In this document: positions 3,445-44,966 of the stretch, one piece after another | Layout: each line of letters begins with the position of its first letter | Position numbering within the stretch: position 1 is the stretch's first letter | Source: Carbonactinospora thermoautotrophica | GTDB taxonomy: Bacteria; Actinomycetota; Actinomycetes; Streptomycetales; Carbonactinosporaceae | Direction: 5' to 3' | DNA: 64,000 nucleotides | Assembly (NCBI RefSeq): GCF_001543895.1 | Contig: NZ_JYIJ01000010.1 | Span: 62,001-126,000 of the forward strand | Notes under the pieces: generated by a model | The model's input: only the letters and a program-made list of their open reading frames with translations | What the model was told of the DNA's origin: nothing | Database searches by the model: none | Made by a program: the position numbers and the translations under genes

Positions 3445-6400
3445 GTGCGAACACGACCCACGAATCAGCGCGCGGGCGAACCGGAGCGCGCCTCAACGGA
3501 GGTGTTCCGCGAGGCGACGGAGGCGCCGGGCAGTCAAGCGGCGAAGTCGCACGAGCGGGAGGCTCGCCAGGTCAGCCCGCGGTTCGAGCGACTGCGGGAC
3601 AGGTTCTTGCTGCGCCACCAGCGGGTCCACACGCGCCTGCTCGCCCTCATCCTGCTTCCGCTGCTCGTCGCGGTCGTGTCCAGCGCCGTGAACGTCGCGC
3701 ACAGTTGGCAGGACCGCAACCGGCTGGCCGGTGTCCAGAAGCTGACCGTGCTCGTCCGCGACATCGGCATCCTGGTCCACCACCTGGAGGAGGAACGCGA
3801 CCACACCGCGGTCTACATCGCCAAGGGACGCCGGGGCGACGTGGACAGTGTGACCAAGTACCAGGAGGCGGCCGACAGCGCCGTCGACGAGGTGCGCGAG
3901 GCCGCGAGCGAGATCGACGGCTCGTTCGATCCCTCGGTGCGCCGGGTCGTCCAGACCGTCCGGGACCGGCTGGACAACCTGCCCGCCCTCCGCGAGGCGA
4001 CGGTGCAGAGCAGGATGCGCACCGAAGACGCGGTGGCGATGTACACGTCGTTCATCAAGGACCTGCTCGACACCAGCGTCCAACTCAGCGAGAGCGCCAC
4101 GGAGGCCAGCCTCGGCCGGAGCGCCCGCGCCATCGCCGCGTTCACCCGGCTCAAGGAACTGACCTCCCGTGAGCGCGCGCTGTTGATGGACCCCGCCATC
4201 AACCACCGCTTCGACCCCATCGACTACCAGAACTTCCTGGTCGTCCACGCCGAGCGGCAGAGCGTGCGCGCCGAGTTCCTACGCAGCGCCTCGCCCCGGC
4301 AGCGGCAGTACCTGGAGGACGGGGTCACCGGCCCCGAGGTCGACTCCGCGGAGGGCGTCATCCAGCAGGCGACTCTCTCCCCGGTGTTCCTCGCCCCGCA
4401 GCAGGCGGCCGGGGACAACGCCGCCCGGCAGCAGGCGGCCGAGGACAAGACCCCTGCCGCCGTCGCCCCGAAAATCGACGCCGATCTGCTGTTCCGTTCC
4501 CTGCAGACCGAGTTGCGGCTGATGTACTCGGCCGAGCAGCGGCTCGTGCACGACCTGGAGCAGGAGATCGCCGCCAAGAAGGACGCGGCGCAGCGCAACG
4601 CCCTGCTCACCATCGTGATCGTGCTGATCTCGCTGCTGCTCACCATCGCCGCGACCCTGTACGTGGCCCGGTCGATGGCCGGCCCGCTGCTGCGGCTGCG
4701 GCGCGCCGCGCAGGAGATCGCGAACGAGCGGCTGCCCAACCGCGTCCGGGAGCTCAACGAGTCCGATCCCCACAAGGTCGACCTCACCGTCGAGCCCATC
4801 GACATCACCTCGCGCGATGAGATCGGCGAAGTGGCGCGCGCGTTCGACGAGGTGCACCGCGAGGCGGTCCGGCTCGCGTCCGAGCAGGCCCTGCTGCGCA
4901 GCAGCGTCAACGCGATGTTCGTGAACCTCTCCCGCCGTACCCAGAGCCTGGTCCAGCGTCAGCTCAAGCTCATCGACGAGCTGGAGCGCAGCGAGCGCGA
5001 CCCCGACCAGCTGGCGAACCTCTTCAAGCTCGACCACCTGGCCACGCGCATGCGGCGCAACGGCGAGAACCTGCTGATCCTGGCCGGCGAGGAGCCGGGC
5101 CGGCGGTGGAACCAGCCCATCCCGCTGATCGACATCCTGCGGGCCGCCGCCTCCGAGGTGGAGCAGTACGAGCGGGTGCAGGTCAGCAACGTGCCGAGCG
5201 TGGACGTGGTCGGCCGCGCGGTGAACGACCTCGTCCACCTGATCGCCGAGCTGCTCGAGAACGCCACCTCGTACTCCGCGCCCGGCACGAAGGTGTGGGT
5301 CTCCGCCCAGACCCTGCCGGGCGGGGGCGTCATGGTCGAGATCGAGGACAATGGCATCGGCATGAGCCCCGATGAGCTCGCTGACGCCAACCGGCGGCTG
5401 GCCGAGCCCCCCGCGATCGACGTGTCGGTGTCCCGCCGGATGGGCCTGTTCGTGGTCGGCCGCCTGGCCGCCCGGAACAACCTGCGCGTTCGGCTCCGCT
5501 CCTCGGCCGGCGGCGGCGTGACCGCGCTGGTCACGATCCCGGCCGAGCTCATCGCTGACCCGACCCGCCTGACGGCCTTGGGCACCCCGGACACCGGGAG
5601 CGCCCCGGTGTCGGACACCTCCCCGGTGGCCGAGGGCCCGAGCGCGTCGGAGCGGTTGTCTCCCCGCCGGGCCATGCCCGAAGCATCCGGGATCCTTATC
5701 CCGCGCCAGGTGACCGCCGGGGAGTTGGGTCGCCGGCGACCGGCCCTGCCGTCCGGCAGGGCGACGCCTCCGCACTCCCCGCCGGTCGGCGTGGACCTCA
5801 GCAGTATCAGCGGGCCGCGTCACGCCAGCGGACGCCGGTCGGTCGGCCCGGCCCAGGGTGCCGACGGCCGCCCCGGCCGGTCCGGGTCCGCGCAGCCGAC
5901 GCAGGACCAGCCCACCCCGGCCAGCGGGGCGGCGACGCCGGGTGACCCGCGGGACCAGGCCGGCGCTCCGGGCTGGCCGGTCGTTCCGCCCCCGGGCGCT
6001 CCGTTCGGGTACCCGATCCGGCTGGCGGACCCGGGCGCGGCGGGCCAGCGGCCCGGTGTTCCGCAGCCGGCCGAGCCGGCGCCGGTCGAGGGGACGCGGC
6101 CGGCGGAGCAGCCCGCTGGTGAGGCCGATGCCACCCCCCTCGCGGGGCTACGCCCAGTGCCGCCCAGCGCGCCGGAAGACGACGCCCGCGAGAACACCGC
6201 CGTCCGGCTTCGACCGGCGCCGAAGGAACCGGACATCCTCGACCCGTCCACCCCGCTCGAGGGCGTCCGGGTGGAGCGTCTCCCGATCTTCGAGGCGATC
6301 GAGTCGGAATGGTTCCGGCGGCGTACCGGGCCGAAGGCGATCCCGGCCGGCGAGAACGGCGTGGTCCCGCTCCCGGCGACGCCGCCCGCGGGGAGCCCGA

Positions 6401-29418: not shown

Positions 29419-30342
29419 CTAGGCGGGCGGGCCGAACGAGTACCCGGCGCGCAGCAGTTGCGGGATGAGCACGCGCAGCGCCGCCACGGTCGCGGCGCGG
29501 TTCCCGCCGCCGTCGTGCAGCAGGATCACCGAGCCGGGCGCGAGCTGCCGGTGTACCTGCCGGACGATGCTCGCGGCACTGCGGCCGCGCTCCCAGTCAC
29601 GTGGGTCCACCGACCACCCCAGCGGTTGCATCTCCTGCGCGGCCGCCGCCGTCGTGAGCCGCGGCGACCAGTTCCCTCCCGGGGCGCGGAAGTACCGCAC
29701 GCGCGCGCCCGGGGCGACCTGCTCGATCAGCCGCTTGGCGGCGCCGATCTCGTACTGGACGCGGTCGTCCGGCCTGCGCCGCAGCCGATCGTCATGGGTC
29801 ATGGTGTGGTCGCACAGCCAGTGGCCGTCCGCCACGATCTGCCGGACCAGCTCGGGGTGGGCGCGGACCTGCGTGCCGATCAGGCAGAACGTGGCCCGCA
29901 CCCGGTACTGGCGCAGCAGTGCCAGCACTTGCGGCGTGTACCGGGGGTGGGGGCCGTCGTCCAAGGTGAGCGCTACCCACCTGCCCGGCCGGTGCGCCAT
30001 GCCGGTCATGACGGCAGCGGTCACCGGGTCAGCGGTCACCGGCTCCTGGCGGGCCGGCTGCGGCGGCGTGACCCGCCCGGTCGAGGGCGGCCGGGTCGGC
30101 GGCGTGACCCACCCGGTCCAGGACGGCCGGGTCGGCCGTGGCATGGGGGACGGCGTGAGCACGGCCAGCGTGTTCGCCGACGGCAGCGCGGCTGTCCCGA
30201 TCGGCACTCCAGGGGCCGTGCGCACTCTCGCGGACGGGGCCGGCTGGGCCGCGGCGACGCCGAATACCAGCACGGCCAGCGTCAACCCCATGCTCAGCGC
30301 GGGCAGCACCCAACGGTGAAGCGGAAACCCGAATCGCGACAT
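29419..30342 (-). CDS. Secreted polysaccharide deacetylase (NodB domain)
   Basis: A 307-residue exported enzyme. An N-terminal signal or anchor helix (about residues 8-32, HRWVLPALSMGLTLAVLVFGVAAA) is followed by a Pro/Thr-rich spacer to about 115 and a NodB deacetylase domain. The domain has VALTLDDGPHPRYTPQVL (catalytic and metal Asp), HTMTHDDRLRRR (metal His pair), YFRAPGGNWSP and SVILLHDGGGNRAAT. It would remove acetyl groups from peptidoglycan or another cell-surface glycan. ATG 30342 follows AGGGGG. The open frame extends upstream to 30618 but without coding character. Confidence 0.92.
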   Translation of the reverse strand: MSRFGFPLHRWVLPALSMGLTLAVLVFGVAAAQPAPSARVRTAPGVPIGTAALPSANTLAVLTPSPMPRPTRPSWTGWVTPPTRPPSTGRVTPPQPARQEPVTADPVTAAVMTGMAHRPGRWVALTLDDGPHPRYTPQVLALLRQYRVRATFCLIGTQVRAHPELVRQIVADGHWLCDHTMTHDDRLRRRPDDRVQYEIGAAKRLIEQVAPGARVRYFRAPGGNWSPRLTTAAAAQEMQPLGWSVDPRDWERGRSAASIVRQVHRQLAPGSVILLHDGGGNRAATVAALRVLIPQLLRAGYSFGPPA

Positions 30343-40507: not shown

Positions 40508-40756
40508 CCGTGCGTCGGCCCCTCACCACGGTGGCGAGCGCTCCGGCCGGCGACCGCGCCCGCCGGCCGGCTACGGACAGCGCCAGCAGCCCGCCGTGCG
40601 CGTCCCGGGGACGGTCCCGTCCCCCAGGCGTCGCGGGGCGTGGCCGGTCGGCCCCGCATCGGGAGTTCCAGCCACCGCACCGCCGGGCGCATGACTCGTC
40701 CGCACGATGCGCGGATGACAGGATGGGCGGGACGGTTTCACGCCTGGAGGTGTCCT

Positions 40757-42100
40757 GTGACCAACGGTCCTGCCGAGAGCCCTGTCACGGCGCTCCAGCC
40801 GCTACGGGCCGAGGACGAGGTCGTCCAGCTGTGCCACGACCTGATCCGGATCGACACCAGCAACTACGGCGACTCGTCTGGCCCCGGTGAGCGGGCCGCC
40901 GCCGAATACGTCGCCGAGAAGCTGTCCGAGGTGGGGCTGGACGTCCAGATCTTCGAGTCCGAGCCGGGGCGGGCGAGCGTGGTGACGCGTGTCGAGGGCA
41001 CGGACCCCAGCCGCCCGGCCCTGCTGATCCACGGCCACCTGGACGTCGTGCCGGCCCGCGCCGAGGACTGGACCGTGCATCCCTTCTCCGGTGAGGTGCG
41101 CGACGGCTGCGTCTGGGGTCGCGGCGCGGTCGACATGAAGGACATGGACGCGATGGTGCTCGCGGTCGTCCGGGACCGGCTGCGGACCGGGCGCAAGCCC
41201 CCGCGCGACATCGTGCTCGCGTTTCTGGCTGACGAGGAGGCCGGCGGGGTGCTCGGAGCCCGCTGGCTGGTCGACCACGAGCCGGAGCTGTTCGAGGGTT
41301 GCACCGAGGCCATCGGCGAGGTCGGCGGGTACTCGTTCACGGTCCACGACGACCTGCGGCTGTACCTCATCGAGACCGCCGAGAAGGGCATCGCCTGGAT
41401 GAAGCTCACCGCAGCCGGGCGCGCCGGGCACGGCTCGATGGTCAATGACGACAACGCGGTCACCGAGCTGTGCGAGGCCGTGGCGCGACTCGGCCGGTAC
41501 GAGTTCCCGGTGCGGATCACTAAGACCGTACGGACGTTCCTGGAAGAGGTCTGCGCGGCGCTCGGGATCGAGTTGGACCCGGACGACCTGGAGAGCACGA
41601 TCGCCCGGCTGGGCCCGATCGCGCGGATCATCGGCGCGACGATCCGCAACACGGTCAACCCGACCATGCTCGACGCCGGGTACAAGGTCAACGTGATCCC
41701 GAGCCAGGCGAGCGCGTACGTGGACGGGCGGTTCCTGCCCGGGTACGAGGAGGAGTTCTTCGCCCAGGTCGATGAGGCGCTCGGACCCGGGGTCACCCGG
41801 GAGTTCGTCCACCACGACATCGCGGTGGAGACCGGCTTCGACGGCGCGCTTGTGGAGGCGATGAGCGCGGCGTTGCGGGCGGAGGATCCGGGCGCCCGGG
41901 CGGTGCCCTACTGCCTGTCCGGCGGCACCGACGCCAAGTCCTTCTCCCGGCTCGGCATGCGGTGCTTCGGGTTCGCGCCGCTGCGGCTGCCGCCGGACCT
42001 GGACTTCGCCGGAATGTTCCACGGGGTTGACGAGCGGGTTCCGGTGGAGGGGCTGCGCTTCGGCGTGCGCGTTCTCGACCGTTTCATCGACGGCTGTTGA
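40757..42100 (+). CDS. M20 family metallopeptidase
   Basis: A 447-residue di-zinc exopeptidase or amidohydrolase of the M20 (ArgE/DapE/CPG2) family. The first metal motif is LLIHGHLDVVP, the second GRGAVDMKDMDAM, and the catalytic Glu pair is FLADEEAGG. The lid/dimerisation domain is near residues 200-340 (GRAGHGSMVNDDNAV), and the last metal His is in GMFHGVDERVP. GTG 40757 follows TGGAGG at six bases; upstream in-frame starts lack a site. The exact substrate (dipeptide, N-acyl amino acid) is not given by the sequence. Confidence 0.93.
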   Translation: MTNGPAESPVTALQPLRAEDEVVQLCHDLIRIDTSNYGDSSGPGERAAAEYVAEKLSEVGLDVQIFESEPGRASVVTRVEGTDPSRPALLIHGHLDVVPARAEDWTVHPFSGEVRDGCVWGRGAVDMKDMDAMVLAVVRDRLRTGRKPPRDIVLAFLADEEAGGVLGARWLVDHEPELFEGCTEAIGEVGGYSFTVHDDLRLYLIETAEKGIAWMKLTAAGRAGHGSMVNDDNAVTELCEAVARLGRYEFPVRITKTVRTFLEEVCAALGIELDPDDLESTIARLGPIARIIGATIRNTVNPTMLDAGYKVNVIPSQASAYVDGRFLPGYEEEFFAQVDEALGPGVTREFVHHDIAVETGFDGALVEAMSAALRAEDPGARAVPYCLSGGTDAKSFSRLGMRCFGFAPLRLPPDLDFAGMFHGVDERVPVEGLRFGVRVLDRFIDGC

Positions 42101-42290: not shown

Positions 42291-42704
42291 ATGTTCGTCA
42301 AGAAGTGCCTGGTGGTCGCCGTCGTCGCGGGCAGCATGGTGCTCGGTGGCGCGGGAATGGCCTTCGCGGACGCCGCGGCCGGCTCGGTCAGCTACAACCC
42401 GGGCAGCGTTGGCTCCGGCAACAACGTCAACACCGCGGCGAACGCGCCGATCAATGCTTGCGGCAACAGCATCGCCGCCCTCGTTGGCCTGGCCGGCAGC
42501 AACGCTTTCTGCGGGAACACGGATGGCTCCGCTCGTGCCGGCTCGGTCAGCTACAACCCGGGCAGCGTTGGCTCCGGCAACAACGTCAACACCGCGGCGA
42601 ACGCGCCGATCAACGTTTGCGGCAACAGCGTCGCCATCGCCGGCCTGGCCGGCAGCAACGCTCTCTGCCTGCAGGACAGCGGCTTCAAGAGCAGCGGGAA
42701 GTAA
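42291..42704 (+). CDS. Chaplin with two chaplin domains
   Basis: A 137-residue secreted hydrophobic surface protein. The signal peptide runs to about residue 27 (GGAGMAFADA). Two chaplin domains follow, each beginning GSVSYNPGSVGSGNNVN and each with a Cys pair (ACGNS...FC and VCGNS...LC), as in amyloid-forming short chaplins that coat aerial hyphae. There is no sortase motif, so it should be released and assemble at the air interface. GGACAGGAG precedes the ATG. A clear hairpin terminator follows, and a longer chaplin is next in the same direction. Confidence 0.93.
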   Translation: MFVKKCLVVAVVAGSMVLGGAGMAFADAAAGSVSYNPGSVGSGNNVNTAANAPINACGNSIAALVGLAGSNAFCGNTDGSARAGSVSYNPGSVGSGNNVNTAANAPINVCGNSVAIAGLAGSNALCLQDSGFKSSGK

Positions 42705-42845: not shown

Positions 42846-42873
42846 CGTAACTTATCCCCATACGTTTCGTTTA
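42846..42873 (+). promoter_or_regulatory. Candidate BldN-type sigma promoter of the long chaplin
   Basis: CGTAAC (42846-42851), 16 bases, then CGTTTA (42868-42873). The sigma BldN consensus known for chaplin promoters is close to CGTAAC-N16-CGTTGA. The box ends 54 bases before the ATG, leaving a normal leader. Confidence 0.6.
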
Positions 42874-42927: not shown

Positions 42928-44034
42928 ATGCAACTGTTCGCCAAGAGAGGCCTGGTCCTGGTCACGGCGACGGGAAGTCTCGCACTTTCCGGATTCGGCG
43001 TCGCGTTCGCGGAGGCGAACACGGGTTCGACGAGCTCGAACCCCGGGAGCGTGGGGTCCGGCAACAACGTCAACGCGGCGGTCAACGCTCCGGTGACCGT
43101 CTGCGCCAACGGCGTTGCGGTCCTCGGTTTCGCCTTAGCCGGTGATTGTCTCGCCACGGGCCCCAGGGGATCGGCCTCCTCCGGCTCCCAGAGCTCGAAC
43201 CCTGGGAGCGTGGGGTCCGGCAACAACGTCAACGCGGCGGTCAACGCTCCGGTGACCGTCTGCGGCAACGCCGTCGGAGGCGTTATCGCCGAGGGCGGCG
43301 ACTGTCCAGCGAGCAGCGGGTCGGGCGCCACCGGGGCGACCGCCGGCAGCTCCAGCCAGAACGACGACGCCGTCGGGTCCGGTAACAACGTCAACCCGGT
43401 GGTCAATGCTCCGGTGCTCGTCTGTGGCAACGGCGTCGCCGTGCTGGGCGTGGCCCTGGCCGGTGACTGTGGTTCCGCGGGTGGGTCGGGCGCCTCGTCC
43501 GGTTCCTCGAGTCACAACCCGGGGAGCGTGGGGTCCGGTAACAACGTCAACCCGGTGGTCAATGCTCCGGTGCTCGTCTGTGGCAACGGCGTCGCCGTGC
43601 TGGGCGTGGCCCTGGCCGGTGACTGTGGTTCCGCGGGTGGGTCGGGCGCCTCGTCCGGTTCCTCGAGTCACAACCCGGGGAGCGTGGGGTCCGGTAACAA
43701 CGTCAACCCGGTGGTCAATGCTCCGGTGCTCGTCTGTGGCAACGGCGTCGCGGGCGGCGGCGTGGCGGTGCCGGACGACTGCCCGGTACAGGGCGTCGAG
43801 CCGGATCCGGATCCGAACCCGATCAGCCCGGTGCCCCCCGGGCCGGGGGAGCCTGCGACTGATCAGCCTCCCGGTGGGCCCGCGGAGCCAGAAGACGACG
43901 ACCGGGAGAGCGTCCAGCGCGCGCCGCTGGCGCACACTGGCGCGTCCGGCTGGTGGATCGCGATGCTAGGCGCCGCGTTCGTCGCGGGGGGCCTGGCCCT
44001 CTACCGGCGGTTCCACCCGCGGTCGGCCGGCTGA
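42928..44034 (+). CDS. Long cell-wall-anchored chaplin with five chaplin domains
   Basis: A 368-residue chaplin. After a signal peptide (to about residue 29, GFGVAFAEA) come five chaplin domains, each with an NNVN core and a Cys pair. A Pro/Asp/Glu-rich wall-spanning stretch follows, then the sortase signal LAHTG, a hydrophobic helix (WWIAMLGAAFVAGGLALY) and a basic end (RRFHPRSAG). LAxTG is the class E sortase motif used by streptomycete long chaplins, which normally carry two chaplin domains, so five is unusual. Domains 3 and 4 are exact copies at DNA level. ATG 42928 follows AGGGGAA. Confidence 0.93.
   Translation: MQLFAKRGLVLVTATGSLALSGFGVAFAEANTGSTSSNPGSVGSGNNVNAAVNAPVTVCANGVAVLGFALAGDCLATGPRGSASSGSQSSNPGSVGSGNNVNAAVNAPVTVCGNAVGGVIAEGGDCPASSGSGATGATAGSSSQNDDAVGSGNNVNPVVNAPVLVCGNGVAVLGVALAGDCGSAGGSGASSGSSSHNPGSVGSGNNVNPVVNAPVLVCGNGVAVLGVALAGDCGSAGGSGASSGSSSHNPGSVGSGNNVNPVVNAPVLVCGNGVAGGGVAVPDDCPVQGVEPDPDPNPISPVPPGPGEPATDQPPGGPAEPEDDDRESVQRAPLAHTGASGWWIAMLGAAFVAGGLALYRRFHPRSAG
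43381..43751 (+). repeat. Exact 156-bp tandem repeat inside the long chaplin
   Basis: The segment starting GGTAACAACGTCAACCC at 43381 recurs at 43537 and 43693: two full copies with no differences seen, plus about 59 bases of a third before divergence. The period of 52 codons equals one chaplin domain plus linker, so copy-number changes keep the frame. Confidence 0.9.
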
Positions 44035-44345: not shown

Positions 44346-44966
44346 ATGTCACAGGTCTCGCCGCCAACCCCTGACCGCGTCCGCGCTGCTGCGGAGGCCC
44401 TCAAGAACGCCATCGACCGTCACCTCGCCGCTGTCGAGCAGCGCAAAGGCGAGAGCGACCCGGTGGTCTTCCAGGCGTTTGAGGAGCTGCAAGCCGCGGC
44501 TGAGGCCTATGACGACTTACTGTACGACGCGTACGAGGAGGTCACCCCGTTCGAGTTCGGGGGCTACGCCGAGGAGCCAGAGGAGCTGGAAGCGGTCAGC
44601 ATCCGCATCCGCCGTGACTACCTGATCGAGGACTCCGACGCCGTGCTGGCCGCCGCTCGGGAGGCGTTCCTGGCCGAGCGCCCCGGTGTCAGCGCCGAGA
44701 CCGCCGCGGAGGCCATCAAGACCGTCGAGTCCGCCGTCGCTACGCTGTTCGACGCGTACGAGCCGGACGCACTCGACGAGCACGCCGAGAAGGTCGGCCT
44801 CGCCCCGGTCGGCAGCACCCTCTGGGTGGTCGCCACCGAACCGCACGAGGACGACGAGTGGCTGGACGAGCCGTTCCGGTCCGGCGAGAGCGAGCGCGTG
44901 ATCTACCGCCTCGACGTCACGGTCAGGGACGAGGCCGAGGGAGACGACGACAACAAGGACGACTAG
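44346..44966 (+). CDS. Acidic hypothetical protein
   Basis: A 206-residue cytoplasmic protein, strongly acidic and mostly helical (AAAEALKNAIDRHLAAVEQRKGE, FEELQAAAEAYDDLLYDAYEE), with a mixed C-terminal part (STLWVVATEPHEDDEWLDEPF, ERVIYRLDVTVRD) and a Glu/Asp tail. No signal peptide or membrane helix. I do not recognise a named domain. It resembles conserved actinomycete hypothetical proteins. It converges with the RecD-like gene, with stops only a few bases apart. Confidence 0.78.
   Translation: MSQVSPPTPDRVRAAAEALKNAIDRHLAAVEQRKGESDPVVFQAFEELQAAAEAYDDLLYDAYEEVTPFEFGGYAEEPEELEAVSIRIRRDYLIEDSDAVLAAAREAFLAERPGVSAETAAEAIKTVESAVATLFDAYEPDALDEHAEKVGLAPVGSTLWVVATEPHEDDEWLDEPFRSGESERVIYRLDVTVRDEAEGDDDNKDD

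What the first reader, a model, noticed from the sequence alone, without database searches (positions are those of the whole stretch)
42928..44034. Five-domain anchored chaplin growing by exact tandem duplication
Known anchored chaplins carry two chaplin domains. This one has five, with domains 3 and 4 (156 bp) identical at DNA level, showing very recent expansion. Copy number may vary between strains and change surface hydrophobicity or fibre formation.
Basis: partly seen in the sequence, partly recalled or inferred. Interest (0 to 1): 0.6.

Follow-up and report, generated by a model that had tools for sequence, protein, structure and literature searches.

The report
Five-repeat ChpC-type wall-anchored chaplin
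This is an ordinary wall-anchored surface-coat protein (a chaplin) whose water-repelling repeat was recently copied once more, making five; relatives carry two to eight repeats at the same chromosomal spot, so the count is not remarkable, but the freshness of the last copy is.

Summary
Window 42928-44034 encodes a 368-aa secreted protein with five chaplin (PF03777) domains and an LAHTG sorting signal. A 156-bp unit is repeated with 221 bp of uninterrupted identity (43375-43595 = 43531-43751), covering all of the domain 3/domain 4 unit and the first 65 bp of domain 5. This is the longest exact internal repeat among about 145 multi-domain chaplin gene entries examined; the next longest is 124 bp. 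D4 starts like D5 and ends like D3, the signature of one in-frame unequal crossover in a four-domain ancestor. The claim that anchored chaplins have two domains holds only for Streptomyces. Catenulispora-type relatives have 3-4, other actinomycetes 4-6 with sorting signals, and Streptosporangiaceae mostly 7-8. The gene lies in a conserved locus (M20 peptidase - short chaplin - long chaplin - DUF5703 - RecD-like) also found in streptomycetes, matching the chpH-chpC arrangement. The genome holds only this gene and its two-domain secreted neighbour, plus one sortase, of class E, and the gene has a sigma-BldN-like promoter. Best reading: a new member of a known family with one recent duplication. 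Strain variation and functional effect are untested.

The parts
42846..42873 (+). sigma-BldN-like promoter, CGTAAC-N16-CGTTTA, 54 bp upstream of the start codon
   Evidence: Only match of CGTAAC-N15-17-CGTT in the window (0.09 expected) and only match of CGTAACN{15,17}CGTTNA in the 5.13-Mb genome. Published BldN motif CGTAACN16CGTTGA (PMC2375139). The same half-sites lie upstream of 2 other chaplin genes; 3 of 130 upstream regions against 0.1 in shuffles. The last but one base differs from the published motif.
42928..44034 (+). long (ChpC-type) chaplin gene, 368 aa, five chaplin domains, LAHTG sorting signal
42928..43014 (+). signal peptide (MQLFAKRGLVLVTATGSLALSGFGVAFAE), cleavage site inferred
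   Evidence: read from sequence; basic start, hydrophobic stretch, AFA-E; not run through a predictor
43051..43149 (+). chaplin domain 1 (VGSGNN...GDC)
43210..43305 (+). chaplin domain 2; 61-bp exact run shared with domain 1 at offset 159
43372..43470 (+). chaplin domain 3
43375..43530 (+). 156-bp tandem unit, copy 1 (D3 core, tail and linker)
   Evidence: identical to 43531-43686
43528..43626 (+). chaplin domain 4; starts like D5 and ends like D3
43531..43686 (+). 156-bp tandem unit, copy 2
   Evidence: identical to 43375-43530; 221-bp run in all
43684..43782 (+). chaplin domain 5; 43687-43751 identical to the D3 and D4 starts, then diverged
43930..44031 (+). LAHTG sorting signal, hydrophobic segment and basic tail
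   Evidence: sequence LAHTGASGWWIAMLGAAFVAGGLALYRRFHPRSAG; helix 340-362 in a low-confidence model
42291..42704 (+). neighbouring secreted chaplin, 137 aa, two domains, no sorting signal (occupies the ChpH position)
   Evidence: Pfam 52 bits; 77-bp exact internal repeat at offset 159
40640..42100 (+). M20 peptidase, upstream marker of the conserved locus
   Evidence: Pfam; 71-76% identical orthologues beside the long chaplin in L097-L099, L105, L106
44108..44413 (-). DUF5703 protein, downstream marker of the conserved locus
   Evidence: Pfam; conserved position
44346..44966 (+). 206-aa conserved protein, downstream marker
   Evidence: 44-48% identical in L097, L098, L099, L105
44973..47900 (-). 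RecD-like helicase, downstream marker
   Evidence: Pfam AAA_30, HHH_RecD2; conserved position

Best explanation
This is the long, wall-anchored chaplin of the conserved chpH-chpC-type locus. The protein is secreted, attached to peptidoglycan through LAHTG by the genome's single class E sortase, and presents five hydrophobic, assembly-prone chaplin domains on flexible Gly/Ser linkers outward from the wall. These co-assemble with the neighbouring secreted two-domain chaplin into the hydrophobic coat of aerial structures and tether it to the wall. The fifth domain arose by one recent in-frame 156-bp unequal crossover (or replication slippage) between the near-identical D3 and D5 cores of a four-domain gene. 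Shown here: gene, domains, sorting signal, sortase, synteny, repeat anatomy. Inferred: anchoring, secretion, co-assembly, coat function, developmental control by a BldN-type sigma factor.
For: Five PF03777 domains plus LAHTG. One sortase in the genome, over the class E cut-off (204.7 against 160 bits). Synteny M20 - short chaplin - long chaplin - DUF5703 - orf206 - RecD-like in Streptomycetaceae-like genomes, most of it in f10 and part (M20, DUF5703) in f19. chpH and chpC have neighbouring locus numbers sco1675 and sco1674 (PMC5650626). Sortase-mediated coupling of ChpC shown and co-assembly proposed in S. coelicolor (PMC5618241); ChpC + ChpH on a ChpE background restore aerial growth (PMC3079736). 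BldN-like promoter. Crossover signature: D4 = D5 start + D3 end, 221 bp identity, period 52 codons. Longest exact run among about 145 multi-domain gene entries, next 124 bp.
Against: Domains score weakly with Pfam (22-30 bits each for the listed ones, against about 100 for Streptomyces) and lack the last profile positions; the third GN becomes GD or DD and D1 has CAN for CGN. No structure or expression data; the full-length model is low confidence (pLDDT 53). Whether this organism forms aerial mycelium is unknown. Copy number could be affected by assembly. Perfect identity could also come from gene conversion in an older array.
Confidence: 0.85

Rival explanations
1. Domain 4 is an assembly artefact: a repeat of 221 bp was mis-resolved and the true gene has four domains or more than five.
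For: 19-contig draft; a 221-bp exact repeat exceeds typical short reads and k-mers; no reads available.
Against: Assemblers usually collapse such repeats; keeping an extra traversal usually needs pair, coverage or long-read support (general knowledge). Reading frame and linkers are intact.
Confidence: 0.12
2. The array is older and D3-D5 are kept identical by ongoing gene conversion, so it is not a recent expansion.
For: D1/D2 share a 61-bp exact run and the neighbour gene a 77-bp one, so homogenisation or duplication is active locally.
Against: Identity ends sharply as expected of one duplication, with the D3 upstream linker and D5 tail untouched.
Confidence: 0.2
3. The domain number is a tunable, strain-variable trait altering hydrophobicity or fibre formation.
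For: A long exact repeat should be recombinogenic (inference); domain number at this locus ranges 2-8 between lineages.
Against: Within Streptosporangiaceae the count is stable: 50 of 77 named loci have 8 and 18 have 7, with diverged repeats. No strain data; no functional data.
Confidence: 0.25

Closest known systems
ChpC, long chaplin of Streptomyces coelicolor (SCO1674), with ChpH (SCO1675)
   Same: Chaplin domains, C-terminal sorting signal, secreted chaplin partner next to it; streptomycete genomes here have the same flanking genes.
   Different: Five domains instead of two; partner has two domains instead of one; domains shorter and divergent; only two chaplin genes in the genome against eight in S. 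coelicolor.
Anchored chaplins of Catenulispora-type genomes (f3)
   Same: Same order, LAHTG/LAETG/LAQTG signal, 3-4 domains, short chaplin next to the long one.
   Different: One to two fewer domains; no M20/DUF5703 neighbours within about 4 kb; longest exact internal repeat 17-64 bp.
Multi-domain chaplin-like proteins of Streptosporangiaceae (Microbispora, Nonomuraea, Herbidospora and others)
   Same: Next to the M20 peptidase and/or DUF5703 genes.
   Different: Mostly 7-8 diverged domains; hydrophobic C terminus without a canonical LPxTG/LAxTG match in my scan.
Six-domain chaplin-like proteins L096 and L107
   Same: More than two domains with LAETG or LALTG near the C terminus.
   Different: Domains lack the paired cysteines; different surroundings.

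Membership tests
Chaplin family (PF03777, ChpA-C) | chaplin domain by profile | tested here: met
   73 bits against 21
Chaplin family (PF03777, ChpA-C) | three GN motifs and two cysteines per domain | tested here: inconclusive
   Both cysteines in all five domains; first GN always present, second GN in four of five (CAN in D1), third is GD or DD. Definition from PMC13251363.
Chaplin family (PF03777, ChpA-C) | amyloid assembly and surface activity | not testable with these tools
   needs purified protein
Long chaplin, ChpC type | C-terminal LAxTG sorting signal, hydrophobic segment, basic tail | tested here: met
   LAHTG...YRRFHPRSAG
Long chaplin, ChpC type | class E sortase encoded in the genome | tested here: met
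Long chaplin, ChpC type | position next to a short chaplin in the conserved locus | tested here: met
Long chaplin, ChpC type | exactly two chaplin domains (as in Streptomyces; variable elsewhere) | tested here: inconclusive
   Five here, so the Streptomyces number is not met; but 3-8 in relatives at the same or similar loci, so the number is not a defining trait outside Streptomyces
Long chaplin, ChpC type | covalent attachment to the wall | not testable with these tools
   inferred from the motif

The most novel reading that the evidence does not exclude
The 156-bp repeat is a contingency-type element: by recombination the anchored chaplin gains and loses whole domains between strains, tuning coat strength or hydrophobicity in an organism that has only two chaplin genes.
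Probability: 0.2. Interest if true: 0.5.

Novelty: new member of a known kind. Interest (0 to 1): 0.25.

Why it matters
It shows that the ChpC position of a conserved actinomycete locus holds proteins with 2 to 8 chaplin domains, and catches one domain being added. With a two-gene complement this organism may be a simple natural system for asking how many chaplin domains are needed for a functional coat. The papers read here describe long chaplins as two-domain proteins, which is a Streptomyces-based generalisation.

Tried and rejected
First genome-contig scan with the five-domain protein found no relative, and the seven-protein alignment was too diverse to scan with; an eight-domain relative worked. 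Plasmid tblastn: no match. No relative by sequence in PDB. No strain comparison possible: only genome of its genus and family. Structure prediction was uninformative: full length pLDDT 53 with about three strands per domain and a C-terminal helix; single domain pLDDT 48; no fold search was run on such models. A first domain HMM was contaminated by wrong-strand seeds and gave false antisense domains; replaced. No paper on multi-domain chaplins or chaplin copy number was found.

Full report
Observation. The ORF at 42928-44034 encodes 368 aa: signal peptide, five chaplin domains joined by Gly/Ser linkers, a Pro/acidic stretch and LAHTG plus hydrophobic segment and basic tail. TRF reports period 156, 2.5 copies at 43371-43766. 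The exact run at offset 156 is 221 bp, 43375-43595. D3, D4 and D5 cores are 98-100% identical in DNA; D1 and D2 are 97% to each other and 86-87% to the rest.

How the repeat arose. D4 compared with D3 is identical from the core onward, through its tail and linker; D4 compared with D5 is identical from the upstream linker through the first 65 bp of the unit and then diverges. This is the product of one unequal crossover or slippage between D3 and D5 cores in a four-domain ancestor, adding exactly 52 codons. Zero differences in 221 bp puts the 95% upper bound on divergence at about 1.4% (rule of three, my arithmetic), so the event is recent or the copies are being homogenised.

Is it unusual? 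In those 77 named loci the tally is 50 with 8 domains, 18 with 7, 4 with 6, one with 5, and the rest cut or broken (tallied by hand). So five is within range. With canonical sorting signals, six domains occur in two genomes (L096, L107), though those domains lack cysteines; among cysteine-bearing proteins with a canonical signal, five is the most in my sample. The exact repeat is the outlier: 221 bp against at most 124 bp elsewhere (the two sets overlap in part).

Locus. The flanking genes (M20 peptidase upstream; DUF5703, a 206-aa protein and a RecD-like helicase downstream) flank the short-long chaplin pair in three Streptomycetaceae-like genomes; f10 has M20, the 206-aa protein and the helicase, and an f19 genome has M20 and DUF5703. 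chpC and chpH of S. coelicolor are sco1674 and sco1675. I did not inspect the S. coelicolor record itself, so equating the locus with chpH-chpC rests on the arrangement. The whole genome has only these two chaplin genes with seven domain matches and one sortase, class E. Three f3 genomes (G014, G016, G020) likewise show only four domains in all.

Control. CGTAAC-N16-CGTTTA lies 54 bp before the start codon; the published BldN motif is CGTAACN16CGTTGA (PMC2375139). The genome-wide count alone is not significant (about 1.6 expected by my base-composition estimate, 1 found), but position and recurrence before other chaplin genes support it (3 of 130 exact, 27 of 130 relaxed, against 0.1 and 0.7 in mononucleotide shuffles). 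I did not test for a BldN orthologue.

Function. By transfer from S. coelicolor: long chaplins are sortase-anchored and proposed to tether the amyloid layer by co-assembly (PMC5618241), and ChpC with ChpH on a ChpE background supports robust aerial growth (PMC3079736). More domains per anchor plausibly gives more tether points. This is inference.

Verdict. Real feature, correctly seen, recent duplication supported; novelty of the domain count not supported; strain variability and phenotype untested.

Noticed in passing
42291-42704: The unanchored neighbour chaplin has two domains, unlike one-domain Streptomyces short chaplins, and a 77-bp exact internal repeat at offset 159.
   Followed up: partly
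G000 (whole genome): Only genome held of its genus and family, in the order of streptomycete- and Catenulispora-type genomes; small (5.13 Mb) with just two chaplin genes and one sortase.
   Followed up: partly
L162: Microbispora rosea orthologue reads as a 431-aa, three-domain ORF with an internal repeat out of frame (offset 533), suggesting a frameshift or assembly break.
   Followed up: no
30052-30136: 36-bp tandem repeat, 2.3 copies, in the window.
   Followed up: no
4392-4448: 30-bp tandem repeat, 1.9 copies, in the window.
   Followed up: no
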